Shown here piece after piece: positions 45,736-60,400 of a DNA stretch of 60,400 nt. A program made the position numbers and the translations under genes. How positions within the stretch are numbered: the first letter of the stretch is position 1; every line of letters starts with the position of its first letter. The notes under the pieces are model-generated. The model was not told where the DNA came from. It did no database searches and saw only the letters and a program-made list of their open reading frames with translations. Source of the DNA: Gemmatimonadales bacterium (lineage in GTDB: Bacteria; Gemmatimonadota; Gemmatimonadetes; Palauibacterales; Palauibacteraceae); contig VXMR01000124.1 in the NCBI GenBank assembly GCA_009841005.1, positions 1 through 60,400 of the forward strand. Reading direction: 5' to 3'.

Positions 45736-45765
45736 GGTGCCGGCAACTACTCACGATCGCGTATC

Positions 45766-46971: not shown

Positions 46972-48164
46972 GCTCGCCTCGCTTCGGAACGGGCGACGAG
47001 CGATGCGCCGACCATGTCGCCCATGATGTTCACCGTCGTGTTGCTCATGTCCACCAGACGGTAGATCCCCCCGACGATCGCCGCGACCTCGATCGGCAGG
47101 TTCAGCGCCTGCACGTAGATGAGCGCGACCACGAAGCCGCCGCCCGGGACCCCGCCCGTGCCGTGCGAGAGCAGCAGGCCCAGAAGCAGGATCGTGACGA
47201 AGTCCGCCGCGGAGAAGGTGACACCGGCCGCCTGCGCCGTGAAGAGGAGCACCGCCGCCAGCATGACCGAGGTCCCGTCCTTGTTGAGCTGCGCCCCGAG
47301 CGGAAGGACGAAGGAGTAGACGCGGCGCGGGAGGTCGAGACGCCCGGCCGTCTCCAGTCCGACCGAGAGCGAGGCGAGGCTGGACGTCGTCGCGGCGGTC
47401 GTGGCCCACAGCGAACCCGTGGTCCGCAGGAAGCGGGCCGGCCGGTAGTCGCTGAAGAACCTGAGCAGGAGCATGTACCCCGTCACGATGACGATCTGCG
47501 CTCCCCACACGCCCGCGAGGAACCGCGCCGTCGGGCCGATCAGGTCGGTCCCGTAGCGGCCCACCGTGACCGCGACGAGGGCGCCAATGCCGACCGGGGC
47601 GATCCACAGAATCATGTGGACGAGCCGGCGGAAGAGCGCCGCCAGATCCTCGAACAGGGTGGCGAGGCGAGCGCGCGGGCCGTCCCCCAGAGCCAACGTC
47701 GCGATCCCCAGCACCAGCGCGAGGATGACGATCTGCACCACGTTCCCCTCGGCGAAAGCGCGGACGACGTTCGTCGGGATCATGTCGAGGAGGACATCGA
47801 CCGCTGAAGGGGCCTCCCCCACCGCCCCCGAGACGGTCTCCGGCACCTGCTCCGCGAGCCGCATCCCGACACCGGGGCGCAGGAGTGCCATGGCGCCCAG
47901 TCCGAGCGAGAGCGCGACCAGTTCCGTCGTGAGGAAGAAGCCGACAGTCTTGCCGGCGAGCCGCCCCAGCGTGCGCAGGTCCGCCAGCGAGGTCAGACCC
48001 GCCAGGAGATTGAAGAAGACGAGGGGGGCAGCTGCCAGTATCAAGAGCGTGATGAAGAGGTCGCCGAGCGGCTGGATCGCGGCGCTGCGCTCGCCGAGGA
48101 CCGCCCCCAGGACGACGCCGGCGAGCATCCCGATCAGTATCCGCCCGCCCGGCCCCGCCTTCAT
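46968..48164 (-). CDS. Dicarboxylate/amino acid:cation symporter (GltP/DctA family)
   Basis: A 398-residue membrane protein of the DAACS family. Typical segments are LIGMLAGVVLGAVLGE, FFNLLAGLTSLADLRTLGRLAGKTVGFFLTTELVAL, the serine-rich TTAATTSSLASLSVGLE motif (hairpin 1), FVLPLGAQLNKDGTSVML, and GIYRLVDMSNTTVNIMGD (ligand site). It takes up glutamate, aspartate or C4-dicarboxylates with sodium or protons. It follows the VapC gene without a gap and overlaps the aminotransferase gene, so the operon starts with a toxin-antitoxin pair. Confidence 0.92.
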   Translation of the reverse strand: MKAGPGGRILIGMLAGVVLGAVLGERSAAIQPLGDLFITLLILAAAPLVFFNLLAGLTSLADLRTLGRLAGKTVGFFLTTELVALSLGLGAMALLRPGVGMRLAEQVPETVSGAVGEAPSAVDVLLDMIPTNVVRAFAEGNVVQIVILALVLGIATLALGDGPRARLATLFEDLAALFRRLVHMILWIAPVGIGALVAVTVGRYGTDLIGPTARFLAGVWGAQIVIVTGYMLLLRFFSDYRPARFLRTTGSLWATTAATTSSLASLSVGLETAGRLDLPRRVYSFVLPLGAQLNKDGTSVMLAAVLLFTAQAAGVTFSAADFVTILLLGLLLSHGTGGVPGGGFVVALIYVQALNLPIEVAAIVGGIYRLVDMSNTTVNIMGDMVGASLVARSEARRA

Positions 48165-48581
48165 TCAGCGAACTTCGGCGAACGGATTGATGATCCGCAG
48201 ACCGCCGTAGTCCTGCTCGGCGCTCAAGTCTTCCGAATACACGATGTCGCAGCCACCGGTGCGGGCCGCAGCCAGAATTGCGCCGTCCCGGTACGACAGT
48301 TGAAAGCGTCGGCTGATGGCAGCGGCGGCGCGGAACAGGTCGAACGTGATTTCCTGGATGGGAAAACGTTCGAGCGATTCGATGAACCTCAACGCCTGTG
48401 AGGATGCGAGGGCCTGAGGCCGGCCGGGTCTGGTCACCTGATGGTAGAACTCCTGGAGAACCTGCACGGACAGGGTCAGGTCCTCGCGGTCCAACAGGTC
48501 GTTGGCCGCCCGACATTTCTCGTCTTCCCCGGACGCCGGGCTTACCGCATAGATCAGAACGTTCGTATCAACGAAGCGCAC
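48165..48581 (-). CDS. vapC: VapC-family PIN-domain toxin
   Basis: A 138-residue PIN domain with the standard four acidic positions: FVDTNVLIYA (D5), VLQEFYHQV, SYRDGAILAAA and DIVYSEDLS. It should be a magnesium-dependent RNase. The gene begins 14 bases inside the antitoxin gene and ends exactly where the symporter gene begins. That makes it part of a four-gene transcript with a transport and amino acid function, which is an unusual place for a TA pair. Confidence 0.9.
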   Translation of the reverse strand: MRFVDTNVLIYAVSPASGEDEKCRAANDLLDREDLTLSVQVLQEFYHQVTRPGRPQALASSQALRFIESLERFPIQEITFDLFRAAAAISRRFQLSYRDGAILAAARTGGCDIVYSEDLSAEQDYGGLRIINPFAEVR

Positions 48582-48858
48582 GACGCTCGTAGAGTTCTTC
48601 GCGGGAAACGTTGTCCGACGCCCGGAATCCGCCGCGCGTGGCGCGAATTTCGTCGAGCAGTTCCTCCCGGATTCTGCGACTGCGCTCGCGGGACGTCTCT
48701 ACGACCTGCGATGTCCGGCCGACGGACGCACCACGCTTCCCGGCAAGATCTCTCAGGTATTCCCTCACGAGGGCGGAAACCGACGTATCCAGTTCCGCGG
48801 CCCGGATGCGCGCCAGCCGATGTGTCTGTTCATCGACGGATACGGTGATGTTCCTCAT
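48568..48858 (-). CDS. vapB: VapB-like ribbon-helix-helix antitoxin
   Basis: The ATG at 48858 gives 96 residues. The N-terminus MRNITVSVDEQTHRLARIRAAELDTSVSALVREYL is a ribbon-helix-helix DNA-binding unit. The C-terminus is charged and flexible (SRERSRRIREELLDEIRATRGGFRASDNVSREELYERR) and should wrap the toxin. It overlaps vapC by 14 bases and is expected to repress the whole operon through conditional cooperativity. Confidence 0.87.
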   Translation of the reverse strand: MRNITVSVDEQTHRLARIRAAELDTSVSALVREYLRDLAGKRGASVGRTSQVVETSRERSRRIREELLDEIRATRGGFRASDNVSREELYERRALR

Positions 48859-48958
48859 GAACACAGTCTCACAGTTAATGTGGCCCACAGCCTACCGGAC
48901 TGCGGAGCTTGACGCAATGAGACCCAGGGGAATCGCGCTTGCGGCCAATACTCCGCGC

Positions 48959-50170
48959 TCACGGCCTCCGTTCGAAGCGGACGCGGGCCGCGCGCTCCAC
49001 GCCGAGTTCGTCGGCAGTGATGCCGTAGAGCGCCGTTTCCGTCGCCCAGGGCACCGCTCGCGGATCCACGCGGCTCGGCCAGCGGTAGCGGGCGACGAGG
49101 GTCGCGCCCTCATAGACGTCCGCCTCGACCATCTCCGCGCCGTCGGCCGCGGCCCTCTCGACCCACAGCCGACCCGCCTGATCGAAGAAGATGTCCGCGA
49201 GGGGCCCCTTCCTCCCGGGAATCTCGAACGCCGGCTCGTCGAGATTCCCCCGCTCCATGTCCCGCTCGAGGCGGCTCCGGGCGTACTCCCGCTCCTCCGG
49301 GCTGAGGGGCGGGCCCGGGTCGGGCGGACCGGTGATCTCCGTCACGGAACCATCCGCGGCGTGAAGTTCGACCGCGTAGAGGGAACGCGAGGCGCTGGCC
49401 CAGGCGCCCCCCGGCCCGTGGGCGCGCAGCCAGAGAGGCCCGTACGGCTGGTAGAGGTACAACTCGGCGGTGCCGCGGAAACCTTCCCCGAACCCGCTCA
49501 TGTCGACGACCACGGTCCGGTGTCCCGCCGCCGCGGTTTCCGGCTCCCTGAGCACGACCGTGTCCGCGCTCCCGTCCGCGTTCACGTGGACGCGACCGTG
49601 GACGAAGGGCTCGCCGGAACTCTGGAGCGAGCCGACGTCGACGAGCCTCCCGTCAGCGTCGAAGGTCACGGGGGCGGCTCCTCCCTGCCCGCCGAACGGC
49701 CGGCGCTGGACGCGCAGGTAGGCGGCGGCCGCGTCGCCCAGTTCGAACGCCGTGTAACGCGCCGCCTGGCGCACCCAGAGCTCTCCCTCCGGCGAGAACC
49801 CGAGGCAACAGGGACCCCTGAACTCCTCGGGTCCGTCACCTTCCCCGCCGAGCCGGAAGAGGAACGCACCGTCGGGATCGAAGACGCGGACCTCGCTCGC
49901 CTCCCGGTCGACGACAAGGATCCTCCCCAGCGGATCCTCGGCCACCGAGGCGATGCGGCTGAACAGATACGCCTCGTCCCCGTCGAGTTCTCCGATCTCC
50001 AGGTCTACGGTCCCTTCAAACGTGGGAACACCGGTCGACGGCTCCGGGGCATCGCCATCGGTGCAGGCGGTGACGCAGAGCAGAATGGCCGCGCACAGGG
50101 GAACGGCGACCCACGAGACGGGTCGGCGCGACCATCGTGGCTTCGGGGAAAGAAACGGTGCGTCCGACAT
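48959..50170 (-). CDS. 6-bladed beta-propeller lipoprotein
   Basis: The ATG at 50170 with GGAG upstream gives 403 residues. The signal ends in AAILLCVTACTDG, a lipobox. The body has repeated propeller blades (for example LGRILVVDREASEVRVFDPDGAFLFRLGGEGDGPEEFRGPCCLGFSPEGELWV). Proteins of this type are common in Gemmatimonadota and Bacteroidota and are usually of unknown function. It is the last gene of the dipeptidase-amidohydrolase run, with a 31-bp gap. Confidence 0.85.
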   Translation of the reverse strand: MSDAPFLSPKPRWSRRPVSWVAVPLCAAILLCVTACTDGDAPEPSTGVPTFEGTVDLEIGELDGDEAYLFSRIASVAEDPLGRILVVDREASEVRVFDPDGAFLFRLGGEGDGPEEFRGPCCLGFSPEGELWVRQAARYTAFELGDAAAAYLRVQRRPFGGQGGAAPVTFDADGRLVDVGSLQSSGEPFVHGRVHVNADGSADTVVLREPETAAAGHRTVVVDMSGFGEGFRGTAELYLYQPYGPLWLRAHGPGGAWASASRSLYAVELHAADGSVTEITGPPDPGPPLSPEEREYARSRLERDMERGNLDEPAFEIPGRKGPLADIFFDQAGRLWVERAAADGAEMVEADVYEGATLVARYRWPSRVDPRAVPWATETALYGITADELGVERAARVRFERRP

Positions 50171-50201
50171 GACAAGACTCCGTTCAGGTCGCGCCCGGCC
50201 G

Positions 50202-51707
50202 TCAGGGCCGGCGCGCGGGCGGGGTTCCGAGTTCGAATTCGTCGCGGTCGAAGCGGCGGCCGCGCTTGAGCGTGAAGCGTATGGACTTGACGTTGTCGAC
50301 GCCTGCCGTGGGATCCTCTTCCAGGAAGACGAGGTTGGCGTACTTCCCTTCCTCGACCGTCCCGATGTCCTCCGCGAGACCAAGCGCGAGCGCGCCGTTG
50401 CGCGTGGCGGCCTGAATGACGTCGGCCATGGGCATGCCGACGCGCTCGTGAAGGTAGGCCAATTCATCGTAGAGGGCGGGCCATTCGGAGCCGGGGGCCG
50501 GCGGGGCGTCGGTTCCCGCCGAGATCGGGACGCCGGCCTCGTACGCGCGGCGGGTGAGGGCGACGCTCTCCTCGGCGCTGCATGCGGCCCGGACGCCTCG
50601 CCGGCGCGGATCGGGAGGCGGTGCGTCCGGCCCCTCCCTCGGGCCGTCCGGCCTCGGCGCGGGGGGTGCGGGAGGCGCGGCGGCGCTGTCCCGGGCCAGC
50701 GTCATCTGCTCGCGGAAGAAGCCGACCGTGAGCGTCGCGTCGAGCACCGTGCCCCGGCGCTTCATCTCCTCGAGAACCGCATCGATGCGGGGATCATCCA
50801 GATCCACCTCGACCATGCCGGAGCGGCGTCCGGCGAGCGCTTCCGCCACCACGTCGTCGGGGATCGCGGCGCTCGCCAGACTGCACACATGCGACATCGA
50901 GGTGACCCCCGCCCTCGCGACGTCCAGCGGCAGGGCCGGGCCGACGTGGGTGTGGGACCACACCGGGATTCCCTGGCGCCGGGCCTCCGCCGCGATCCTG
51001 GCCAGGAGGGGGCCTTCGATCGAGGCGTAGATCTTCAGTCCCGTCGCCCACGTGCCCCGGGCCAGCGCGATCGTTTCCACCAGATCGGTCTCGTCATCGA
51101 CGATCTGCAGCCAGGGGACGCGGCCGGGCACTTCACCCATCGACGAAGACCGCGTGCGCGGGTCGATGAAGAAGGACTCCCCGGCGACGAGGGCCGCGTA
51201 GTGGATGTCGGGCGACGGGATCTCGCCGACCAGCGCCGCCCGCTGGAGTTCCGCGAGCGCGCGCACGTCGCCCGCCATGTCCCGTGCCGTCGTCACGCCG
51301 CCGTAGATTAACCGGTTGAGTTCGAACTCGGCCGCCGTCCGGTCCGCGCGCGTGGCGAGGTGCGTGTGGCTCTCGATGAGTCCGGGGATGACGTACAGCC
51401 CCCGCGCATTCTCGATCTCGGCTTCGGGCCAGTCTTCGGGGGACAGTTCGTCCGCCGCCGCGAGCGCCGCGATCCGTCCGTCGCGGACGACGATCGACAT
51501 GTCCGGCATGAACGGCGGGCCGGTGCCGTCCAATACCGAGACCCCTTCGTAGATGGTCGTCTCGGGCTCCGCGTTCGGATTCCGCGGCGGTTCCCCGCTC
51601 CGCGACTGGCCTGCGAGGGGAGCGGTCAGCGCGGAGAGCATCGCGAGCGCCACCCGCGCCGGATGGGTCGCCTGCGCCCCCGTGGTCGGCCGGCCCCGCG
51701 GAGCCAC
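50202..51707 (-). CDS. Exported amidohydrolase (imidazolonepropionase-like)
   Basis: The GTG at 51707, seven bases after GGGGAG, gives 501 residues. A short signal (ALAMLSALTAPLAGQ) precedes an amidohydrolase-1 fold: GLYVIPGLIESHTHLA (first metal histidines), WATGLKIYASIEG with the lysine, WSHTHVGP, SHVCSL, and SAGTDAPPAP (metal aspartate). A Pro-rich segment near residue 330 interrupts the barrel. It would act on a cyclic amide or peptide in the periplasm. It follows the M19-like dipeptidase after two bases, suggesting peptide or cyclic-dipeptide use. Confidence 0.87.
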   Translation of the reverse strand: MAPRGRPTTGAQATHPARVALAMLSALTAPLAGQSRSGEPPRNPNAEPETTIYEGVSVLDGTGPPFMPDMSIVVRDGRIAALAAADELSPEDWPEAEIENARGLYVIPGLIESHTHLATRADRTAAEFELNRLIYGGVTTARDMAGDVRALAELQRAALVGEIPSPDIHYAALVAGESFFIDPRTRSSSMGEVPGRVPWLQIVDDETDLVETIALARGTWATGLKIYASIEGPLLARIAAEARRQGIPVWSHTHVGPALPLDVARAGVTSMSHVCSLASAAIPDDVVAEALAGRRSGMVEVDLDDPRIDAVLEEMKRRGTVLDATLTVGFFREQMTLARDSAAAPPAPPAPRPDGPREGPDAPPPDPRRRGVRAACSAEESVALTRRAYEAGVPISAGTDAPPAPGSEWPALYDELAYLHERVGMPMADVIQAATRNGALALGLAEDIGTVEEGKYANLVFLEEDPTAGVDNVKSIRFTLKRGRRFDRDEFELGTPPARRP

Positions 51708-51709
51708 CG

Positions 51710-52891
51710 TTATTCTCCCCACACGTCGCGCAGCACGCGCAGCGCGTTCATCCCCAGGATCCGCTCGATGCGCTCCGACGAGTGTCCGCGCGCCCCGAGC
51801 ATGCCGGCTAGTTTCCGGAACTGGTCCGGGCCCTGAAGATCGGGGATGAAGGGGACGACGCCGGGGCGCTCGCCCGCCGCGCTGATCCCCGCCCTGCGCC
51901 GGGCCTCGACCTCCCGGCGCGTCGCCTCGTACGCGGCATCGAGATCGTCCACGGCCGTCGTGCCGCCATCGGTGCCGATGCCGACGTGCTCCTCGCCGCA
52001 CACCTGCACCGCGTGCTCGATGTGCCGCACGACATCCTCCGCCACGGCCATGCCGTCGGCCGCGAGGAAGGGCATGAAATATATGCCGACGATGCCGCCG
52101 CCCTCGGCGACGAGCCTCAGTTCCCGGTCCGTCTTGTTGCGGGGAAGGTCCGTTACCGCCCGGCAGCCGGTGTGCGTGATCGCGACCGGCGCCGCGGAAG
52201 CATCGATCCCGTCCAGGCAGGTCTGCTCGCCGCTGTGGCTGAGGTCCACCAGCGTCCGGGTGGCGTTGAGTTCGGCGACCACGTCCCGCCCGAAGCCCGT
52301 GAGCCCGCCGTTCTCCGGCACCATCGATCCGTGTCCGAGCTGGTTGGAGCCGTTGTAGGTGAGCTGGATGATCTTGACGCCGAGGCCGGCGAAGACGCCG
52401 ACCCGCCCGGCGTCGTCTCCCATCATGGCCCCGTTCTGGAACCCCTGGATGATGCCGACTCTGTTTTGGCGTTCCGCGCTCTCGATGTCGCTCGCCACCC
52501 GCACCTTGAGGAGCGCCTCCGGATGGTTCCGGATGATCCGGTTCCAGCGCGCGACCTCGGCGACGGAGTACTCGAACGGCTCCTGCAGGCCCGCCACGTA
52601 ACCGATCGTCGTGTTGACGGCGGCCGTGCCCGAGTCGAGGGCGTCGGAGAGCGCCCGCTCATCCAGCGTGAGCGGCCCGTCCGCCGGGTCGCCGCCGAGC
52701 GGACCCCGCGAACCCCGGCGATTGGGGTTCCGGATGCCGCCGAGCATGTTGATGACGAACAGGTCGGCCTGAGCGCGCCGCACCGCCGGCATCCGCACGC
52801 GAGCCGCCACGCCGGTGGCCGCAAGCGCAAGTCCGGCGGCGACTCCGAGAAACGCTCGGCGCGCGATGTGCATCGGGCTCGCAGTCTCCAT
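51710..52891 (-). CDS. Membrane-dipeptidase-like (M19) protein with altered metal site
   Basis: A 393-residue protein of the renal dipeptidase family. The N-terminus (MHIARRAFLGVAAGLALAATGVAA) is a Tat/Sec-like signal. The first metal motif (H-x-D, normally in DGHND) reads VINML here. The bridging glutamate region, normally IEGG, reads QGFQNG. The later histidines are kept in VDLSHSG and ITHTGCRAV. So part of the binuclear zinc site is lost and dipeptidase activity is doubtful. It may be a binding protein or act with another chemistry. It starts an operon with the amidohydrolase and propeller genes. Confidence 0.82.
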   Translation of the reverse strand: METASPMHIARRAFLGVAAGLALAATGVAARVRMPAVRRAQADLFVINMLGGIRNPNRRGSRGPLGGDPADGPLTLDERALSDALDSGTAAVNTTIGYVAGLQEPFEYSVAEVARWNRIIRNHPEALLKVRVASDIESAERQNRVGIIQGFQNGAMMGDDAGRVGVFAGLGVKIIQLTYNGSNQLGHGSMVPENGGLTGFGRDVVAELNATRTLVDLSHSGEQTCLDGIDASAAPVAITHTGCRAVTDLPRNKTDRELRLVAEGGGIVGIYFMPFLAADGMAVAEDVVRHIEHAVQVCGEEHVGIGTDGGTTAVDDLDAAYEATRREVEARRRAGISAAGERPGVVPFIPDLQGPDQFRKLAGMLGARGHSSERIERILGMNALRVLRDVWGE

Positions 52892-53002
52892 GTGTCAGCG
52901 TCCTCGGATTCCTCAAGCCTCCCCGTTGCAACTCTCGTTGGGCCCTTCCGCGATGCCGTGCCCGGCCGCGGAAGCACGGCTCAACCCCTCCGGCAAAAGA
53001 AA

Positions 53003-53021
53003 GGGGATCATACACGAGAGT
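53003..53021 (+). repeat. Left terminal inverted repeat
   Basis: GGGGATCATACACGAGAGT, the left end of the 1.12-kb element. It is followed by TTGACCTCTCG, so a 6-bp dyad (CGAGAG/CTCTCG, 53015-53031) straddles its inner edge. Confidence 0.75.
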
Positions 53022-53077
53022 TGACCTCTCGAATTGTGGTACCTTCGATTAGCGGTAAGAGCATTGTAGATAACGAG

Positions 53078-53310
53078 ATGAAGCAACACCGAAACGCTCC
53101 CGGAAGATCCAACAGACACGGAATCAGCCTGCGCGAACTCACCCGCAAGTTCCCCGACGAAGAGGCCGCGCGCCAGTGGTTCGAGGACGAGCTGTGGGGT
53201 GGCGAGAGTTGCTGCATGCGCTGCGGGTCGCTCAACACTCATGAGGCCAGCTACAAGACGATGCCCTTATCGCTGCCGCGACCGCCAGAGCTATTTCAGG
53301 GTGAAAAGTC
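53078..53310 (+). pseudogene. Truncated, frameshifted IS1595-family transposase
   Basis: The ATG at 53078 begins with a text typical of the IS1595 transposase N-terminus: SLRELTRKFPDEEAARQWFEDELW, then a zinc-ribbon part CCMRCGSLNTHEASYKTMP. One extra T at 53267/53268 shifts the frame. In the next frame the protein continues YRCRDRQSYFRVKS, where the family has a C-x-x-C and then the catalytic domain. The second zinc-ribbon pair is damaged (CRDR instead of CRDC) and the DDE-like catalytic domain is gone. Only about 75 of roughly 300 residues remain. Confidence 0.8.
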
Positions 53311-53450
53311 TGGTTCATGCTGCGCCGGCCCCGCACCTAGCGCGCACCCTGTTACGCTATCCGGTGTTGAAAGGGCGGCAGGTCAAGAAACGGGGGACGC
53401 CCGGCCCGAGCCAGACGCCCCCCAAAGAGCGCGACCGGAACACCTGACCG

Positions 53451-53885
53451 TCAGTCCTCCTGGAACATGGCCCAGCCGTTCTCGTCGGCCAGCTGCGCCA
53501 AAGGTGTGTCCGGATCCTCGGGGAGACCCACGTTGCACGAGTCCTCTCCGATTCCCTTCCAGTCGCCGGTGGCGGCGTCGATGATGATCGGGAGCAGACC
53601 ACCGAGGAGGTCGAGCAGGACCCAGCCCGCACCGACGTTTGAACTCAGTTCGCACACCACATCCTCGTAGCCGTCCTTCCGGAAGATCACCGTGTGGGAA
53701 TCCTGGTTGTCGAGCGGCAGGGAGAGTGGCGTGACGCCGCGCATCGTCCCATCGATCCAGACCTCGGCCTGGGCGGGCGTCGAGGTCATCGCAATGGTTT
53801 TGACCTTGGTGTTGAACAGCGCTCCGCAGCCCGCAGTGGCGACGATGAGAATCAGCAATACGAGATGTTTCAACGTCCGGGACAT
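53451..53885 (-). CDS. PEGA-domain lipoprotein (passenger gene)
   Basis: The ATG at 53885, six bases after GGAGG, gives 144 residues. The signal (LVLLILIVATAGCGALF) has a lipobox. Residues 30-75 are a PEGA-like domain (MTSTPAQAEVWIDGTMRGVTPLSLPL then HTVIFRKDGYED). After that comes a hydrophobic turn (VLLDLLGGLLPIIIDAATGDWKG) and an acidic tail. PEGA domains bind surface or cell-wall components; the role here is unknown. The gene lies inside the inverted repeats, opposite to the transposase remnant, so it may be carried by the element. Confidence 0.8.
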   Translation of the reverse strand: MSRTLKHLVLLILIVATAGCGALFNTKVKTIAMTSTPAQAEVWIDGTMRGVTPLSLPLDNQDSHTVIFRKDGYEDVVCELSSNVGAGWVLLDLLGGLLPIIIDAATGDWKGIGEDSCNVGLPEDPDTPLAQLADENGWAMFQED

Positions 53886-54293
53886 CTGCAACCTCCGTCG
53901 CACGAGAGACGTGAAGGCCCGCTCGGATGGGAGTCGGGCCGTGTCACGATCGCACATGAGGCATGCAGAAAGCCCCGCCTGTTCACCGGGCCTCGGGGAG
54001 CTACCCCTCGGCGCTTGATCGGCTGTGGTATTCAGCGGGAGGCCCGACGCGGGGCCTCATGTGCTTCGTGACGATTCGGAAGGTACGGCTTGCTGCGGAT
54101 GCCGTCCACTCTCGTGTATAATCCCCACCAGTAACGGCACGCTGCGGCACATGATCGTGGGATCTGGAAGCCCGGGAGTCGGAGGAGTCAACGGGAAACA
54201 GTGAAGACGGCAGCCTGACGCGCTGACCTCGGCGAGGCGGGCGTCAGGTGAATACTGTACTTGTACACCCTGCAAGCTTACTTACGATATTTC
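53886..54293. other. Gene-free region with hairpins
   Basis: No gene is seen. The region contains a minus-direction terminator-like structure (CCCCG/CGGGG then TTT, about 53998-53969), a perfect stem GAGGCCC/GGGCCTC (54039-54058), the right inverted repeat, and a long nested stem CCTGACGC/GCGTCAGG (54214-54248) with an inner CCTC/GAGG. A perfect TATAAT on the plus strand (54117-54122) falls inside the inverted repeat. A small RNA from there to 54248 is possible but unproven. Confidence 0.4.
54108..54126 (-). repeat. Right terminal inverted repeat
   Basis: Read on the minus strand it is GGGGATTATACACGAGAGT, which differs from the left end by one base. It contains TATAAT on the plus strand, which could act as a -10 box for outward transcription. 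Confidence 0.75.
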
Positions 54294-54707
54294 TTAGCCA
54301 TCTCTCGGTTCCACAACATAAGTTAGTCGATAGTGGGCCTCATCTAGATCGAACGTCCTTTGACTTTCGCCTGCACCCGACTCGGAATCGTTGATCGTGG
54401 CCACACCGAGCAAATCGTGGTCATCCCCTATCCACGGTGTGTCTTCATCGTACAGTTCTACTCGAACATTGGTATCGAACGGTATGGCTTCCATCCCTCG
54501 CAAATCCCTCGTGTCCCCATTGTTCATGGACCAAACAGAAAAGCGATTTCCGTTGACTACCAGAAAGGCTTCATCCGCTCCACTATCCTCTGGTTCGATG
54601 CAATGCAGCGAAATCAACCGGAGTTGTACATCCACCTCTTGCGCGCTTATGGATGAGGTACTTAACGCTATTCCCACGAGCCCCAGAACAACGAGCGCCT
54701 GATTCAT
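54294..54707 (-). CDS. Small secreted protein, C2-like acidic loops, AT-rich gene
   Basis: The ATG at 54707 gives 137 residues; the first 23 are a Sec signal (MNQALVVLGLVGIALSTSSISAQ). The mature part has VDVQLRLISLHCIEPEDSGADEAFLVVNG, NGDTRDLRGMEAIPF and VELYDEDTPWIGDDHDLLGVATI. The last, an acidic loop between strands, resembles calcium-binding loops of C2 domains. I do not recognise a named family. The gene is clearly less GC-rich than most of the window and has its own AT-rich promoter, so it was probably acquired by transfer. Confidence 0.72.
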   Translation of the reverse strand: MNQALVVLGLVGIALSTSSISAQEVDVQLRLISLHCIEPEDSGADEAFLVVNGNRFSVWSMNNGDTRDLRGMEAIPFDTNVRVELYDEDTPWIGDDHDLLGVATINDSESGAGESQRTFDLDEAHYRLTYVVEPRDG

Positions 54708-54811
54708 GACCTTAGTCCTTTCTTGGAAGACGTTACGAGACACCCTTGCCAGGGGCCCTGCCGTGCTCGTTCTCAATCTCAGGCTCATGCGCGGGGTTGG
54801 GACAGATGTCG

Positions 54812-54833
54812 ATTATATGAATAAGATATTATA
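54812..54833 (-). promoter_or_regulatory. Double TATAAT promoter region of the secreted-protein gene
   Basis: On the minus strand two perfect TATAAT boxes lie at 54833-54828 and 54817-54812, in a short AT-rich stretch about 105-126 bases before the ATG at 54707. No strong -35 is seen for either; TTGACG lies further upstream. AT richness alone could produce these matches. Confidence 0.5.
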
Positions 54834-54915
54834 TTAGATGGTACAGAGACATTGTCGATAGGTGCGTCAACGCGAGGGAGAAGGGCGGGACAGCGGGCTG
54901 TCCGCAGGCCCCCGA

Positions 54916-55242
54916 TCAGCCTCCGGCGTCGGAGCGCGGTGCGTCGAGCAGGGGGGCGAAATGCTCGGAGGCGAAGGCGGCCAGAAGTTGGTCCGGGGGG
55001 ATGCGTTCAAGATCCAGGAGATTGCAGCCGGGCCACCGCTTCGCCTTCCGGCGGAGGGTTTCCCGCGGGAGTCCGAGTTGCGCGCCCACTTTCTTCCACT
55101 TTGCGCCGGCGGCGCGGAGTTGCAGCGCCCTGAGGATGGCGAGGGCGCCGAGGAACCGGTTGAGCGTCGTCCGGCCCCGGGCGCGGGCCCGAAACTGCTG
55201 AAACAACGGATTGCCCAACGCCAGAATCACGGCAAAAATCAC
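54916..55242 (-). CDS. Small helix-turn-helix protein, function unknown
   Basis: A 108-residue protein (GTG start at 55242). The middle reads LRALQLRAAGAKWKKVGAQLGLPRETLRRKAKRWPG, which has the shape of a helix-turn-helix of the transposase/homeodomain type, preceded by a helical RFLGALAIL and followed by PPDQLLAAFASEHFAPLL. No family name is certain. It lies between the secreted-protein gene and the protease gene, in a region with other mobile-element traces, so it may belong to such an element. Confidence 0.5.
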   Translation of the reverse strand: MIFAVILALGNPLFQQFRARARGRTTLNRFLGALAILRALQLRAAGAKWKKVGAQLGLPRETLRRKAKRWPGCNLLDLERIPPDQLLAAFASEHFAPLLDAPRSDAGG

Positions 55243-55539
55243 GTAAGTCTAACCAGGGCTGCACGATCTGCCACTCTTGCCGCTGGGACGGAGCAGGTAC
55301 CATCGTTCCAAGATATCCGGATTTGTAGTGATGAATGGCGGGAGTCTACACCGACAATTCCCGCCAGCGGTTGAGCGCTCAGAGCAGACCGCGCACGCGG
55401 GACGCTCCTTACTCCCAATCCCGCCGCCAACCACCGTGCGAACGCCGCTTGGATGGTGTGCTGGAGCCGGTCACCGGTCACACTGTCCTCGACCTCGACA
55501 TAAAGGCCGCGCTGGACTCAGCGTCCCAACGCTCAGCGG
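55243..55539. other. Intergenic region, nothing recognised
   Basis: I see no convincing gene, RNA or repeat here. Open frames exist on both strands but lack a start, ribosome site and protein-like text. It separates the HTH gene from the end of the restriction cassette. Confidence 0.4.
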
Positions 55540-56607
55540 TCAATCGAAGGTCTCGTACGGCACATGTACTCCTAGGTTCATTTCCTTGACCGCTTGCGCA
55601 ATGACGTGGGCAGGGATACCAGCGTAGTGCGGCGAAAATGGCGATGTGTCGAGGTATTGCCCTTCGATGACGTCGGTTGCCATGCCAACGACATACCCCT
55701 CGTCAGACACGATCGCACCTCCGCTGTTGCCTGGGCGAGCAATCGCCGAGTATAGGAAGAGGTCCGTGGCGGCGATCACGGAGACCGCGTCGTTGGTCAC
55801 CTCACCGCGCTGGACGATAAGGGGCGAGTTGCCGTCCTCCGTAGGCAGCGCGCACGGGAGCCGGGGATACCCGAACGTGTAGACCGTTTGCGTGACAAAC
55901 GGTTCCAAGAACGCAAGCCCTGCAACGGCGTGAAGCGGTTCTGTTACGCGCAGGACGGCAACATCGAGAGCCTCGTGCTCGACGATAGCCCTTGCTTCAA
56001 TCGCGATTTGATTGCCTTGGAAGCGTTGCGTCCGGTTGACCTCCATTCCCGAAACGACATGGCCGCACGTCAAGATGTGATGAGGGTCGAAGACGATTCC
56101 GCTACCGGCGCTGTCATCACCATCAGCGTTCTTGCCGGAGATTTGTACGATCGCGGGTGAAATCTGGCGGTGAAGGAATCGACCACCGAGTGTCTTTCCG
56201 AGCCAGAGCGTGCCCATGCTGCGTATCCTAGAGACCTCGCTCAGGGCATAGTAGCTCTTTGGAATCATGACGTAGCTTGAGTCTGCGCCGGGCATTTCGA
56301 CGAGGATGTTGTGCGCTGCCATTCGCCCAAGTAGGTGTCGCACTTGGTAGATGTGTTGGTCAGGTTCTTCCACACTGTTGGTAGCCTTCAGGAATTCCAT
56401 GAAGTCGCGACCTGACAAGGGAAGAATCGAGCCGGATGCCGGGACCTTTCCGATAACTTGGCAGCTCTCCCGGTAGTTTGCCGGAGAGAAAAACGCCCGA
56501 GCAGCAAGAGCGAGGGCCATCTCCTGATCCACATCCAGCGGGGCAAGCCTCGCGTATCGATCACGTGGCTCGGTTATAGTGGTTGATCGAGGTCGCCCAT
56601 GTGCCAT
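55540..56607 (-). CDS. Trypsin-like serine protease with N-terminal helical domain, restriction-cassette linked
   Basis: I take the ATG at 56607, 11 bases after the preceding gene, giving 355 residues (a longer start at 56649 overlaps that gene). Residues 150-340 are an S1-type protease: LTCGHVVSG (H183), ALDVAVLRV (D215) and ARPGNSGGAIVSDEG (S295) supply the triad. Residues 1-150 are predicted helical, have no signal peptide, and include LLGRMAAHNILVEMPG, which might be a winged-helix part. A cytoplasmic trypsin next to a methyltransferase and nuclease is not a housekeeping pattern. It may cleave a host or phage protein when the restriction system fails or senses infection (inference). Confidence 0.8.
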   Translation of the reverse strand: MAHGRPRSTTITEPRDRYARLAPLDVDQEMALALAARAFFSPANYRESCQVIGKVPASGSILPLSGRDFMEFLKATNSVEEPDQHIYQVRHLLGRMAAHNILVEMPGADSSYVMIPKSYYALSEVSRIRSMGTLWLGKTLGGRFLHRQISPAIVQISGKNADGDDSAGSGIVFDPHHILTCGHVVSGMEVNRTQRFQGNQIAIEARAIVEHEALDVAVLRVTEPLHAVAGLAFLEPFVTQTVYTFGYPRLPCALPTEDGNSPLIVQRGEVTNDAVSVIAATDLFLYSAIARPGNSGGAIVSDEGYVVGMATDVIEGQYLDTSPFSPHYAGIPAHVIAQAVKEMNLGVHVPYETFD

Positions 56608-56618
56608 GACGGTGTAGC

Positions 56619-57389
56619 CTAGCGCAATCGGTGCGGTGTGAGTTGCCACGTGCCTTCCATCCTACACACCCTCTTGTCGATGTTCGCCAACGTCACCTTC
56701 GCGTCGGATCTGTCGAGCTTCAGCGTGAAGTCCGGCGGGTCCTGGCCAATCGGAATCCCGATGGATGGGCCTTCCGGCTTGAACTTGGCACGAGGGACAT
56801 CGGCGACTTGAGCCAAGACGGAGGTTGGAATTCTGACCATTTCGTAGAACGCCTTCTTCCTGAACAGCCGCAGTTGAATGATGGCGTCCACCGTGGCCGT
56901 GTACTCCTCGAACAACCGCTTGGTCTTCTCTTCTCGGTAGGTCGCAATGCGAGCGTCTTGAATCCATGCCGCCTCGCACAACTTGGAAATGTGGAGTGAC
57001 CCTATTCGCAGATTCGCCGCCGCCGTGGACTTCAGGCTGATCCGCCGCCCGTCCAGCTCGACATCCCAGAAGCGCTGACCGGCGGGTGCCTTCCGAATCT
57101 CGTGGCCTCCGCTCCGCGCGGCGCGAATGAACGCCGCTTCAAACGAGTTGGTCGCCAGTGGTGCTCTCAGGAAGTAATGGTGGATGAGCAGTGTCGTTCG
57201 GAACTCCTTCTCGAATCGGGCGCTGAGGAATGGCGGGCGTGAGGCGAACGTGGGGTCGGAAGGAAGGGCCAGTCCGCCACGCTCGTCAGCGGACGGGAAG
57301 GCTGCGAAGGTACCGTCGCACGGCCCACGCATCGCTGCGAGCAGTTCGTCAAGGTATCTCTGTTCCGTGGGGTCCGGTGGGCTCGTCAT
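56619..57389 (-). CDS. Restriction-endonuclease-like protein (PD-(D/E)xK-type, putative type II)
   Basis: The ATG at 57389, overlapping the methyltransferase stop, gives 256 residues. A candidate nuclease core is FWDVELDGRRISLKS (D109 and S118-x-K120, in place of D/E-x-K), preceded by a helix with E84 (NSFEAAF) and followed by LHISKLCEAAWIQD. This order of segments reminds me of SmaI-type restriction enzymes, from memory only. It has no other similarity I can name. The position directly after dcm and vsr supports a nuclease partner of the methyltransferase. The recognition site is unknown. Confidence 0.72.
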   Translation of the reverse strand: MTSPPDPTEQRYLDELLAAMRGPCDGTFAAFPSADERGGLALPSDPTFASRPPFLSARFEKEFRTTLLIHHYFLRAPLATNSFEAAFIRAARSGGHEIRKAPAGQRFWDVELDGRRISLKSTAAANLRIGSLHISKLCEAAWIQDARIATYREEKTKRLFEEYTATVDAIIQLRLFRKKAFYEMVRIPTSVLAQVADVPRAKFKPEGPSIGIPIGQDPPDFTLKLDRSDAKVTLANIDKRVCRMEGTWQLTPHRLR

Positions 57390-58570
57390 GCCGCTTCGCG
57401 AACGAGATCGGAGACTTGTAGGCTCGTTCCGGCCAAGACGAGTGCTGGGATGCTGGGCCGCTCGTTCGTCAGGATCCAACGGCAGAGGTGCGCGAGCTGA
57501 TAGGAAATCAGCGGGGGAACCGCATCCCCGATATGACGGTAAGTGTTTGCCAGCGACGAGCCGTTGAACCGGTAGTTGTGGGGGAACCCGTTGAGGACTG
57601 CCATTTCCGCAACCGTGCAAAGCCGGTCCCGTTCCGGGTGGGCGTACCTCCCATTCCCGATATGGGCACACTCGCGCTTGATCGTAGGGGCGGGCCTGTC
57701 CCAAGCCATCCGACCGTAGACGTCCGGATAAGACCCGAATCTCTCGGCTGCCGCAATCCTCTTCATGGATCCGGTCAGCAGTTCTTCGGCTTCAGGATGG
57801 TCCAACAGGTCCATCCAAGAGCCGCCGTCACGGGGAATGGCGGCTAGTCGGCGCTTGACCGTTTCCGATCCGAATCCTGGGTAACGGTGGTCTGCGTCCT
57901 TCGCTCCCGAGGCGACCGAGAGCGCCCGACGAACCGTGCTGGCGCTTTCCTTCACGCTCCAGCCGTCCCACAAGCTCTCCAGCGTGTAGAGGGGCAGCCC
58001 TTCCCGGGCAGCGATGACGATGGCCCGCTCGCGGATTTGTGGGAGCCCGAACCGGCTTAGCATGTAGTTCCGCCCGTACACGCGGTAGCCGCTATCCTCC
58101 AGACATTCGCGGAAGGCGCGGTAGTGGTGCCGGAAGTTGCCGCGAATGAGTTCGCGCGCGTTCTCCATCACTACGATGTCTGCGTCCAGGGCCACCGCGA
58201 AGCCTGCGGCCTTGGGAACGAATCCGTTGCGGCAATCGTCCCGCAGGTGATTCCGGGGATTGGTTCGGGTGAAGCCCGTGCAAGGTGGACACACGCTCAA
58301 GACATTGACCGCGCGCTCGCCGATGCCCAAGACGCCGCGCACGTCGGTCGGAGCAACCTCCCCGAGGTCGATCCGCTTGGGGTCGATTCCGATGTTGTTT
58401 CGATAGGTGGTGTTGCACTGCAACCGCCCGTTGCCGGAAGTGGGCTTGCCGATCTCCGCATCGGCCGCGCCGATCATCTCGAATGCGCCGTGCGCCTTGA
58501 AGCCAAAGGACATACCCCCGGCCCCGGAGAACAGATCTACGACCGCAATCGGCTGGTCCGAACCCCTCAT
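57386..58570 (-). CDS. dcm: DNA (cytosine-5-)-methyltransferase
   Basis: A 394-residue C5 methyltransferase with ordered motifs: I DLFSGAGGMSFGF (12-24), IV VCPPCTGFTR with catalytic C97, VI VMENARELI (E136-N137), VIII QIRERAIVIA, and the final GDAVPPLISYQLA (motif X). The target-recognition region lies between motifs VIII and IX (about residues 185-330). It protects host DNA by methylating one cytosine in an unknown site. It overlaps vsr on one side and the endonuclease on the other (ATGA at both ends), so the cassette is translated as a unit. Confidence 0.95.
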   Translation of the reverse strand: MRGSDQPIAVVDLFSGAGGMSFGFKAHGAFEMIGAADAEIGKPTSGNGRLQCNTTYRNNIGIDPKRIDLGEVAPTDVRGVLGIGERAVNVLSVCPPCTGFTRTNPRNHLRDDCRNGFVPKAAGFAVALDADIVVMENARELIRGNFRHHYRAFRECLEDSGYRVYGRNYMLSRFGLPQIRERAIVIAAREGLPLYTLESLWDGWSVKESASTVRRALSVASGAKDADHRYPGFGSETVKRRLAAIPRDGGSWMDLLDHPEAEELLTGSMKRIAAAERFGSYPDVYGRMAWDRPAPTIKRECAHIGNGRYAHPERDRLCTVAEMAVLNGFPHNYRFNGSSLANTYRHIGDAVPPLISYQLAHLCRWILTNERPSIPALVLAGTSLQVSDLVREAA

Positions 58571-59004
58571 GGTGCGCCATTCCGGCTAGGATCGCGGGTT
58601 CGATCCACAGCGAGCCAAGAGGCGATACGATCCACCGCACCCGGTTGCCGTAGGTCACATTCCCACACCACAAGGACGCTCCACCCGCCCGCTTCAAGCT
58701 CGCCCCGGTTCTTGGCGTCGCGATCCTTGTTGCGGTCGATCTTCGCCTTCCAGAATGCTCGTCTGGTGGCAGGTAGTGAGCCTGACGGACACGCATGTCC
58801 GTGCCAAAAGCAGCCGTTGACGAAGATCACAGACTTCCGGGACGGGAATACGATGTCGGGGGTGCCCGGCAAATCGCGGCGATGCAGCCGGAATCGGTAG
58901 CCTCGGGCGTGTAGCTTTCTGCGAACGAGGAGTTCCGGCTTGGTGTTCTTGGAGCGAACCGCCGCCATCATCCTGCTCCGCTGCTCACGTGTTACGCGAT
59001 CCAC
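58567..59004 (-). CDS. vsr: Very-short-patch repair (Vsr) endonuclease
   Basis: A 145-residue Vsr protein. Clear marks are MMAAVRSKNTKPELLVRRKLHARGYRFRLH, LPGTPDIVF (catalytic aspartate), and VNGCFWHGHACP. Vsr nicks beside T:G mismatches that arise when 5-methylcytosine deaminates, so it repairs the damage caused by the neighbouring methyltransferase. Start GTG at 59004. It overlaps dcm by four bases, the usual Vsr-Dcm arrangement. Confidence 0.95.
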   Translation of the reverse strand: MDRVTREQRSRMMAAVRSKNTKPELLVRRKLHARGYRFRLHRRDLPGTPDIVFPSRKSVIFVNGCFWHGHACPSGSLPATRRAFWKAKIDRNKDRDAKNRGELEAGGWSVLVVWECDLRQPGAVDRIASWLAVDRTRDPSRNGAP

Positions 59005-59053
59005 GACTCAACCCCTCCGACCACCGACGCCTGCCGAGGGCCGTAGTAGCGTT

Positions 59054-59386
59054 TCACCGGCGACCCCTTGTCGGAGCGAACAGGACTTGTTGCGGGCCAT
59101 CATCGGTCACCGGCGAGACTCTTCCGTGACCGGCTTCCCGCTCAGCGGCCCGGATCAACTCGAAGCCAATCCGTCGGATCCGATCCCCGCGGAGCAGCAG
59201 GGCGTGACCGACTGCGCGGATGCTCTCGGCACGGGGCTTTCGGGTTCCGGCCTTCCATGCAGCGAGGGACTGCCAACTCAGGCCAGCGGACTCCATCATC
59301 TTTCTTCCCGAGTAGGAAGCGGCGTCGGCCGCTCTTGTCAGGAGAGACCTCAGGTCTGCGTCGTGGTTCAGCGGTTCGGGCTGCAA
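59054..59386 (-). CDS. HTH regulator of the restriction cassette (possible controller protein)
   Basis: I start at the TTG at 59386 because GGAGGAG lies six bases upstream; this gives 110 residues. The helix-turn-helix is in YSGRKMMESAGLSWQSLAAWKAGTRKPRAESI. The N-terminus is short and helical, and the C-terminus is charged. An open frame runs further upstream to 59464 but crosses two perfect dyads, which suits operator sequence rather than coding sequence. It ends 49 bp before vsr. A role as controller of the cassette fits but is inferred. Confidence 0.65.
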   Translation of the reverse strand: MQPEPLNHDADLRSLLTRAADAASYSGRKMMESAGLSWQSLAAWKAGTRKPRAESIRAVGHALLLRGDRIRRIGFELIRAAEREAGHGRVSPVTDDGPQQVLFAPTRGRR

Positions 59387-59409
59387 CAAGCTCCTCCAGA
59401 AAAGAAGTT

Positions 59410-59457
59410 GTAGATCAACATATCTACGAATCCCCCTGTAGACAAGAACTGCTACAG
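59410..59457. promoter_or_regulatory. Two perfect dyads upstream of the HTH gene, probable operators
   Basis: GTAGAT-CAACAT-ATCTAC (59410-59427) and CTGTAG-N10-CTACAG (59436-59457) are both perfect 6-bp dyads, centred 28 bp apart. They share the core TGTAG(A). They lie 24-71 bases before the TTG start. On the minus strand TAGATA with TTCTTG 16 bases before it could be a promoter overlapping them. Confidence 0.6.
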
Positions 59458-59464
59458 ACCGCAA

Positions 59465-59846
59465 CGGTGGTCGCGTCGGACGCTACGGGGATCGCCTCCG
59501 TAGCCTCGTCTCCATTCCTGCCCGTAGCTTTCTGGAGGGCGTTGGCGAAGGAGACGAGGATGAGTAGATCGCGTTCAGGAAGGTCAAGGCAATTCGTGCG
59601 CACCTACGCCTTCCTCTCCCCGCTGCGACCCGCAACACGTGAGGCTTGGCGGGGCGGTGGCCGGGGGGCATGGTGTCCCGGCTGACGCAGGGGTGACGGT
59701 AACCTTCCAAGCGGTGCCGATGACACGCCGCTGGCGGCCGCGTGCGGCCGGTTGGATACCTTCCGGGACAGCATGGGAAGACGTGAGATCGCAAGACGCA
59801 CTCCGCCGGTTGACTCGCCTCTGGGCCTGCCCTCACCGTACGGGGC
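59465..59846. other. Gene-free region between the cassette and the right-edge gene
   Basis: No gene is seen. A perfect stem GCTACGG/CCGTAGC (59482-59504, nine-base loop) lies at its left end, close to the two operator dyads, and could be a third site or a leader hairpin. The remainder is GC-rich and contains open frames that look like shadows only. It should hold the promoters of both divergent genes. Confidence 0.4.
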
Positions 59847-60400
59847 ATGGAGACGCCGAAGCAGCAGGTCAACTCCCAGATCGCCCAACTCACGGAACGC
59901 GCAAGGGCGCTGGAGCCTTTGGGCTGGAGGGGACGCCGCGCCGAATGGATCGCGCTCGCCTGCTGCCACGGCGGCGTGTTCACGCGGGTGCAGTGGACGA
60001 GCTTCCTCCGGTGCCACCACGAAAAGGTGGGCCGCGCCGTCCGCAAGCTCGTCGCCCAGGGCGTGGCCATCGAGGAGAAGCCGCCCGGCATCAAGGGCAT
60101 CGGCCGGATATGCCGGATCCACGGTCGCCCGATCTACAAGGCGCTCGGCTTGGGGGACCGCCGCCGCCGGAGGATCACCTCGCCGGAGGTGGTGATGCGG
60201 CGCCTGCTCGGACTCGACTACGTGCTCGAACATCCCCGCCTGCCGTGGCTTCCCACCGAAGCCGACCGGGTGGCCGCCTTCGAGGCGCTCGGGATCGAGC
60301 GGGGGCTTCTTCCCCAACGGGTCTACCGGGGCGCGCTCGGGGGTATCCGGCGCTTCTTCCCGCTCGGGCTGCCCATCGCGCTGGACGCGGAGCGCGCCGT
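59847..60400 (+). CDS. Partial gene, mobile-element-type winged-helix-like protein (runs off right edge)
   Basis: From the ATG at 59847 the frame stays open to the end of the window (184 codons, no stop). It reads METPKQQVNSQIAQLTERARALEP, then WIALACCHGGVFTRVQWTSFLRC with RAVRKLVAQGVAIEEK, which looks like a winged-helix/replication-relaxation-like DNA-binding part. PIYKALGLGDRR, MRRLLGLDYVLEHPRLPWLP and RGLLPQRVYRG follow. I recall this text from integrative-element or plasmid proteins, but I give no name. The rest is beyond the window. Confidence 0.65.
   Translation, partial: METPKQQVNSQIAQLTERARALEPLGWRGRRAEWIALACCHGGVFTRVQWTSFLRCHHEKVGRAVRKLVAQGVAIEEKPPGIKGIGRICRIHGRPIYKALGLGDRRRRRITSPEVVMRRLLGLDYVLEHPRLPWLPTEADRVAAFEALGIERGLLPQRVYRGALGGIRRFFPLGLPIALDAERA

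What the first reader, a model, noticed from the sequence alone, without database searches (positions are those of the whole stretch)
55540..59464. Five-gene restriction cassette that includes a trypsin-like protease
The order is regulator - vsr - dcm - endonuclease - protease, with three ATGA-type overlaps or short gaps, so they form one unit. The first four are a known pattern; the fifth is not. The protease has a complete H-D-S triad, no signal peptide and a 150-residue N-terminal domain that I cannot name. A protease under the same control as a restriction system could act as a second weapon (cleaving a host target if restriction fails) or control the endonuclease. I know of trypsin-like proteases in other conflict systems but not of this architecture with a Vsr/Dcm type II system; this is from memory.
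Basis: partly seen in the sequence, partly recalled or inferred. Interest (0 to 1): 0.72.

Follow-up and report, generated by a model that had tools for sequence, protein, structure and literature searches.

The report
Restriction operon carrying a roaming protease
A mobile DNA-cutting defence operon in this bacterium carries as its last gene a protein-cutting enzyme from an unnamed family that, in other genomes, usually stands alone and often lies near unrelated antiviral systems, which suggests a movable second line of defence whose job still has to be tested.

Summary
The five genes are real and form one unit: regulator, Vsr, C5-methyltransferase, SmaI-like endonuclease and a trypsin-fold protease with an intact H-D-S triad. 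One other genome (G279) carries the same 4-kb block at 88% DNA identity, ending at the same genes between unrelated flanks, so all five can move together; there the protease is under purifying selection (Ka/Ks 0.23). The link is not general, however. G061 and G064 carry the four-gene operon without the protease, and none of the other 39 protease loci of a genome-contig scan holds any of these four genes. Most of those proteases are free-standing; at least 13 of 40 loci have clear defence neighbours (Hma, type I, IIG and III restriction, CRISPR I-G, Lamassu, TIR). Control regions on the same contigs matched none of these. The N-terminal domain models as a winged helix (weak matches). Best-supported reading: a mobile, partner-independent defence-island protease (winged helix plus HtrA-like catalytic domain) captured by a regulated type II operon, probably a second effector rather than a controller of the endonuclease. 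Activity, trigger and target are inferred, not shown.

The parts
55540..56607 (-). Protease, 355 aa (369 aa if GTG 56649 is the start): winged-helix-like N-domain plus HtrA-like trypsin-fold domain, triad intact
56619..57389 (-). SmaI-family type II endonuclease
   Evidence: Pfam PF17411 above cut-off; PADLOC REase_II 8.9e-14
57386..58570 (-). C5-cytosine DNA methyltransferase
   Evidence: Pfam PF00145; PADLOC MTase_II
58567..59004 (-). Vsr mismatch endonuclease
   Evidence: Pfam PF03852; TIGR00632 154.8 vs 97.85 bits; PDB 1cw0 3.8e-27
59054..59386 (-). Small regulator, XRE-like by eye; no family match
   Evidence: start context conserved in four copies
59409..59457 (-). Two inverted repeats (59457-59436 and 59428-59409), operator-like, conserved in window, G279, G061 and G064
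55443..59467 (.). Mobile block shared with G279 at 88% DNA identity
55204..55290 (.). Short repeat with many partial copies in genomes of the genus, at the chromosome side of the insertion
59808..60400 (.). Sequence with several copies in some relatives (11 long matches in G072), probably mobile-element backbone

Best explanation
A horizontally acquired, probably self-regulated type II restriction-modification operon (small regulator, Vsr, C5-methyltransferase, SmaI-like endonuclease) has captured, as its last gene, a member of an unnamed family of cytosolic proteases: a winged-helix-like domain followed by an HtrA-like trypsin-fold domain. The family is mostly free-standing and recurs in defence islands and on mobile elements next to unrelated systems. 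Most likely mechanism, inferred: the protease stays idle until its N-domain meets an infection-related ligand (a protein, less likely DNA); it then cleaves a host or phage protein after a small or aliphatic residue and stops growth or phage production, so it is a second, restriction-independent layer. Placing it under the restriction operon's promoter would delay its expression in a new host until methylation protects the genome. Shown: gene identities, co-mobility of the five genes in two genomes, purifying selection, intact triad, defence-gene context of many relatives. Inferred: winged-helix function, trigger, target, abortive outcome.
For: Five genes collinear with G279 over 59467-55443, flanks unrelated. 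Endonuclease and protease have the same synonymous divergence (Ks 0.56 and 0.55) while regulator, vsr and methyltransferase have 0.12-0.16, so the last two genes appear to share a history; protease Ka/Ks 0.225. Low-GC block: protease 0.579, first 50 kb of the window 0.693. Relatives recur near unrelated defence systems, while same-contig control regions matched only six PADLOC names, none of them restriction, Hma or CRISPR. Triad invariant in 38 of 38, S1-pocket position Ile in 34 of 38. Winged-helix-like N-terminus. Free-standing copies with GC well below their surroundings (L027 0.52 vs 0.64, L078 0.41 vs 0.58) and one with recombinase-like genes on both sides (L024, by eye).
Against: No assay exists. 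Only two copies of the five-gene version are known, one on a 7.9-kb metagenome contig titled Gammaproteobacteria although the search tool puts its genome in the window's class. Operon membership is unusual: of 37 loci counted, 5 have a co-directional upstream neighbour within 60 bases and 6 a downstream one. The individually scanned genes of L024, L036, L037, L041, L044, L052, L054, L055, L057 and L058 gave no PADLOC match. Control regions also had some PADLOC matches (24 families). The N-domain is not basic (net charge -4 in the window, median +0.5). The winged-helix match has Z below 8 and no significant Foldseek E-value.
Confidence: 0.5

Rival explanations
1. The protease serves the restriction system itself: it processes or degrades the regulator, the endonuclease or the methyltransferase and so sets the timing or level of restriction.
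For: Last gene of the operon, 11 bases after the endonuclease stop; endonuclease and protease share Ks.
Against: The same four-gene operon lacks it in G061 and G064; 39 of 40 scanned protease loci have none of these partners; other neighbours share no enzyme with them.
Confidence: 0.15
2. It is a mobile-element maintenance or stress protease, for example an addiction toxin like the reported serine protease/AAA-ATPase pair of plasmid pTiC58, that sits in islands because islands collect mobile cargo.
For: Copies on plasmids and viral contigs; between recombinase-like genes in L024 (by eye); AAA-type ATPase genes nearby in L027 (by eye) and L078. The pTiC58 precedent was seen only as a reference title.
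Against: No constant partner that could be an antitoxin; clear defence systems beside at least 13 of 40 loci.
Confidence: 0.2
3. Chance neighbour: a mobile gene landed behind the endonuclease and is being carried along without function in defence.
For: Only two five-gene copies known; operon context differs in most relatives.
Against: Ka/Ks 0.225 over a Ks of 0.55; block kept intact across two genomes placed in different families; contrast between protease loci and same-contig controls.
Confidence: 0.12

Closest known systems
Regulator-controlled type II restriction-modification systems with a SmaI-like endonuclease and Vsr
   Same: Gene set, order and overlaps; small regulator first; operator-like repeats upstream; C5-methyltransferase with Vsr
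   Different: A protease is appended; recognition site unknown; the regulator matches no family model
HtrA/Deg serine proteases (DegS, DegQ, MarP)
   Same: Catalytic domain fold (best Foldseek row DegS, 5.1e-12); triad; Ile at the S1-pocket position (HtrA-likeness of that position is general knowledge)
   Different: No PDZ hit, no signal-like segment, N-terminal winged-helix-like domain; far below NCBIfam cut-offs (MarP 59.5 of 250, degP 35.3 of 416.2)
Trypsin-like effectors of bacterial conflict systems: CARD-NLR/LypABC (PMC13236601, passages); vWA-MoxR-VMAP and NucA/EAD1 systems (PMC7159879, passages)
   Same: Trypsin-fold protease with an N-terminal adaptor-like domain in defence loci; in LypA the active-site serine is needed for lysis
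   Different: No ATPase/NLR partner gene constant across the loci seen here; the N-domain models as a winged helix; no Pfam adaptor-domain match at E<=0.1
Winged-helix fusion endonucleases that read adenine methylation (PMC11037411, abstract and passages)
   Same: A winged-helix domain joined to a degradative enzyme, sometimes beside methyltransferases
   Different: The enzyme here is a protease; the domain is not basic; no methyl reading shown
Hma / DUF499-centred restriction-like systems (PMC12839542, passage; PMC8565338, search listing)
   Same: Relatives of the protease sit beside Hma genes in L020, L045 and L047
   Different: No Hma gene was found in the window cassette; PMC12839542 has no occurrence of 'trypsin' or 'serine protease'

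Membership tests
Type II restriction-modification system | Endonuclease and DNA methyltransferase genes side by side | tested here: met
   PF17411 and PF00145 above cut-off in overlapping genes
Type II restriction-modification system | Methylation and cleavage of the same site | not testable with these tools
   Needs DNA cleavage and methylome assays
C-protein-regulated operon | Small HTH regulator acting on repeats in its own promoter | tested here: inconclusive
   Conserved inverted repeats, but the regulator matches no model; HTH by eye
SmaI endonuclease family (PF17411) | Profile score above the curated cut-off | tested here: met
   32.4 bits vs 27.3, residues 55-198 only; no PDB sequence match at E<=1
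Vsr endonuclease (TIGR00632) | Profile score above the curated cut-off | tested here: met
   154.8 vs 97.85 bits
Trypsin_2 / chymotrypsin-fold peptidase | Profile score and intact H-D-S triad | tested here: met
   69.6 vs 27.6 bits; triad 38 of 38
HtrA/DegP family (TIGR02037) | Family score and PDZ domain | tested here: not met
   35.3 vs cut-off 416.2 bits; no PDZ among Pfam hits at E<=0.1
MarP family (NF033740) | Family score above cut-off | tested here: not met
   59.5 vs cut-off 250 bits
CARD-NLR protease (LypA type) | CARD-like N-domain, trypsin domain and C-terminal ATPase domain in one protein | tested here: not met
   Only trypsin models match; the protein ends with the protease domain, no ATPase domain
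CARD/death-like adaptor fold of the N-domain | Death-fold helical bundle | tested here: inconclusive
   Listed rows are mainly winged-helix proteins, but an unlisted family is not excluded
Winged-helix domain (N-terminus) | Helices followed by a two-stranded wing, matching solved winged-helix folds | tested here: inconclusive
   Helices then two short strands; H1/H5, IscR, PadR, Zur among the listed rows at Z 6.1-7.9, below the level the tool calls safe; best Foldseek E 0.37
Known PADLOC defence protease | Match over the whole protein | tested here: not met
   RT-Protease_XI 2.7e-12, LmuA 1.3e-8, PDC-M35A 3.3e-4 and Avs1b 9e-4 match only within residues 162-335, the protease domain

The most novel reading that the evidence does not exclude
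The winged helix reads the state of DNA, for example unmethylated or foreign DNA that escaped restriction, and switches the attached protease on. The family would then be a plug-in failure alarm for methylation-based immunity that turns lost DNA discrimination into proteolytic cell shutdown. This would explain its recurrence beside methylation-based systems (type II, IIG, III and Hma) and behind C5-methyltransferase genes on two viral contigs (L077, L078). The uncharged N-domain speaks against it but does not exclude it.
Probability: 0.1. Interest if true: 0.85.

Novelty: new variant of a known kind. Interest (0 to 1): 0.52.

Why it matters
The defence-linked trypsin-fold proteases met in the papers seen here are parts of fixed multi-gene systems. 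Here a compact protease with a winged-helix-like domain roams, mostly as a free-standing gene, among unrelated immune systems in several bacterial phyla and can be wired into an ordinary restriction operon. If it is an effector, it would be a portable second layer that genomes add to restriction. The genomes give a natural test: the same four-gene operon with (window, G279) and without (G061, G064) the protease.

Tried and rejected
Single-protein scan of viral contigs found no relative; the alignment-based scan found six loci, of which L081 (26% identity, E 3e-4) was left out and L076 has a stop inside the matched frame. The annotated phage collection gave no match. PDB sequence search found no relative of the endonuclease. 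Foldseek with the full model aligned only about the protease half in the 50 rows shown; with the N-domain alone nothing below E 0.37; no CARD/death-fold entry was recognised among the 50 rows listed by VIA-align, which does not exclude one. A class sample (394 genomes) and the family of G279 (121 genomes) gave no endonuclease carriers beyond the six of the phylum sample. No RNA family at gathering scores in 48000-60400 and no tRNA in 45000-60400. I tried to read the cargo slot of the same mobile element in relatives, but contigs end at the repeats; G060 shows other genes (a response regulator by eye) between a partial repeat and the backbone sequence.

Literature searches for this protease: searches returned 0 papers; others (20 of 74 listed; 2 of 2; 8 of 14; 5 of 5) listed no paper whose title or opening abstract describes it. 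Passages of five papers were read; none was read whole. The library lacks most subscription papers and preprints, so absence there is weak evidence.

Limits of the context test: PADLOC/Pfam scans covered selected genes, not every gene of every locus; the gene caller was a simple script that missed the protease region in some loci (L027, L051). Loci range from 3.4 to 17 kb (median 16.9 kb). It is a contrast, not a formal enrichment test. In one search the window, G279, G309, L028, L041 and L047 were not counted. Rejected as the main reading: a dedicated regulator of the endonuclease, because neighbours change along the protease tree within well-supported groups.
Full report
What is there. The window holds five - strand genes between 59464 and 55540. 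Pfam names four: Vsr, C5-methyltransferase, a SmaI-family endonuclease and a Trypsin_2 protease, all above curated cut-offs. The first gene has no match in Pfam, PADLOC or NCBIfam; by eye it looks like a small XRE regulator. Four aligned copies (window, G279, G061, G064) share a GGAGG and a TTGCAG start context for it and two inverted repeats just upstream, at 59457-59436 and 59428-59409, while sequence further out diverges. This fits control by a C protein, which binds an operator through an HTH (passages of PMC3874152), but binding is not shown. The protease most likely starts at ATG 56607, 11 bases after the endonuclease stop; residue numbers here follow the longer 369-aa frame.

The unit is real and mobile. 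Window and G279 align at 88% DNA identity over 59467-55443, which is the five genes and nothing else; both flanks are unrelated. The search tool places the two genomes in different families of one class, although the G279 contig carries a Gammaproteobacteria title, so mis-binning cannot be excluded. The block is poorer in GC (0.58 for the protease to 0.66 for the regulator) than the first 50 kb of the window (0.69). Four of seven relatives of the genus that were searched share the chromosome on the left up to about 55208, where a short repeat begins that has many partial copies in these genomes; the right flank belongs to a sequence with several copies in some of them (11 long matches in G072). 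The same-species genome G060 has no match to the protease at E<=1e-12 or to the endonuclease at E<=1e-5.

The protease is optional. In the phylum sample of 395 genomes the endonuclease was found in 6 and the protease in 3. G061 and G064 carry regulator, vsr, methyltransferase and endonuclease with collinearity ending at the endonuclease stop; other small genes follow. G139 has a shortened endonuclease in one frame with the methyltransferase, and G233 a 41% relative with a different upstream gene. G309 has a 37% protease without these restriction genes. A scan of genome contigs gave 40 protease loci; tblastn with the other four proteins (E<=1e-5) hit only the G279 locus among them, and none of two Rhodococcus plasmid loci or six viral loci.

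Divergence pattern. Between window and G279, Ks is 0.12 (regulator), 0.16 (vsr), 0.15 (methyltransferase), 0.56 (endonuclease) and 0.55 (protease), with the change near 57400-57500. Endonuclease and protease therefore appear to share one history, and the front half seems to have been exchanged more recently. Ka/Ks of the protease is 0.225, so it is maintained.

The protease family. An alignment of 38 members shows H197, D229 and S309 invariant. Position 303, six before the serine, is Ile in 34 of 38, which from general knowledge of the fold suggests small or aliphatic P1 preference as in HtrA rather than trypsin's basic one. AlphaFold2 gives a confident model (pLDDT 87.2, pTM 0.84). Foldseek puts the catalytic half with DegS/DegQ. 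The N-domain folded alone (pLDDT 87.1) has no significant Foldseek match, but most listed rows of the second look are winged-helix proteins (H1/H5, IscR, PadR, Zur; Z 6.1-7.9), below the level the tool calls safe. Its net charge is -4 in the window and +0.5 at the median, which is not what a plain DNA-binding domain would show. NCBIfam has no model for the family (best MarP, 59.5 bits against a cut-off of 250), and PADLOC matches only the catalytic domain.

Where relatives live. Clear defence neighbours within the fetched flanks: L020 HmaB and HmaC; L047 HmaA and HmaB; L045 genes 90% and 72% identical to those of L047; L022 type III restriction genes (Res, HepT-like, Mod) ahead of the protease and a UvrD helicase after it; L053 a DpdE-like helicase and a DrmMI/IIG-like methyltransferase; L032 a type IIG enzyme; L039 type I-G Cas genes; L021 a ThsB-type TIR protein, an 8xMP protein and a second trypsin; L029 LmuB (convergent); L040 PprDinG (divergent); L023 type I HsdR (convergent); L056 Avs2-like (about 3.7 kb away). 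With G279 that is 13 of 40 loci. Weaker cases are L025 (AriA-like), L027 (HamB-like), L030 (GajB-like and a TIR-pentapeptide protein) and L048 (RecD-like). The genes scanned individually in L024, L036, L037, L041, L044, L052, L054, L055, L057 and L058 gave no PADLOC match. L028 lies next to a TrkA gene and its protease frame is broken. On viral contigs, L077 and L078 have C5-methyltransferase genes 122 and 350 bases upstream. As a control, 17 regions at least 44 kb away from the protease on the same contigs were fetched; 15 gave genes of at least 355 aa. Their 91 proteins matched 24 PADLOC families at 1e-25, under six names (mad3, IetA, PD-T4-6, mad6, C3a189, MkoA), none of them restriction, Hma or CRISPR. 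The 71 proteins of the 17 protease loci matched 69 families; the 25 shown are led by Hma, GajB, type IIG, PprDinG, PtuA and type I enzymes. This is a marked difference, not a formal enrichment test.

Usually a free-standing gene. Of 37 loci counted, 5 have a co-directional upstream neighbour within 60 bases and 6 a downstream one. The tree places window and G279 with L020 (Hma), L021 (TIR), L023 and L024 (recombinase-like genes on both sides, by eye) at support 100/99, so neighbours change quickly among close relatives.

How it likely works. Because the neighbouring systems share no enzyme, a protease dedicated to one restriction enzyme is unlikely. A self-contained effector that adds a layer to whatever system it sits beside fits better. 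Precedents are LypA, where a helical N-domain and trypsin domain belong to a lysis system and the active-site serine is needed (PMC13236601, passages), and the predicted trypsin peptidases of NTP-dependent conflict systems (PMC7159879, passages; that paper also notes that nearly all trypsin domains in its 'effector position' are inactive, unlike the intact triad here). Sitting last in a regulator-controlled operon would hold expression back until methylation is established. Trigger and target are unknown; the winged helix is the candidate sensor, more probably for a protein than for DNA given its charge.

Verdict. The new element is a mobile, unnamed protease family often found in defence islands, so far without any experiment known to me.

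Noticed in passing
L021:1397-5787: Compact co-directional cluster with an 8xMP membrane protein, a ThsB-type TIR protein, the winged-helix protease and a second trypsin-fold protease; may be an undescribed multi-gene system.
   Followed up: partly
L077:5653-8993 and L078:5848-8969: On viral contigs the protease follows a C5-methyltransferase gene; in L078 an AAA/NACHT-type ATPase gene lies on the other side.
   Followed up: partly
window 55204-55290: Short repeat with many partial copies in genomes of the genus, at the edge of the insertion; may mark an insertion site.
   Followed up: partly
window 52870-54907: Segment between two stretches of chromosome shared with relatives that is largely unmatched in them; holds a PEGA-domain gene.
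   Followed up: no
L018:3843-5542: A 41% relative of the SmaI-like endonuclease overlaps a gene that by eye is an SPPYW-type (N4/N6) methyltransferase instead of C5.
   Followed up: no
L017:3295-5088: In G139 a methyltransferase and part of the endonuclease read as one frame, with stretches of both missing.
   Followed up: no
L022:212-9625: Type III restriction genes with a HepT-like gene between Res and Mod, then the protease, then a UvrD helicase, all co-directional with short gaps.
   Followed up: partly
L028:8001-9030 and L041:7983-8992: Two relatives with broken reading frames.
   Followed up: no
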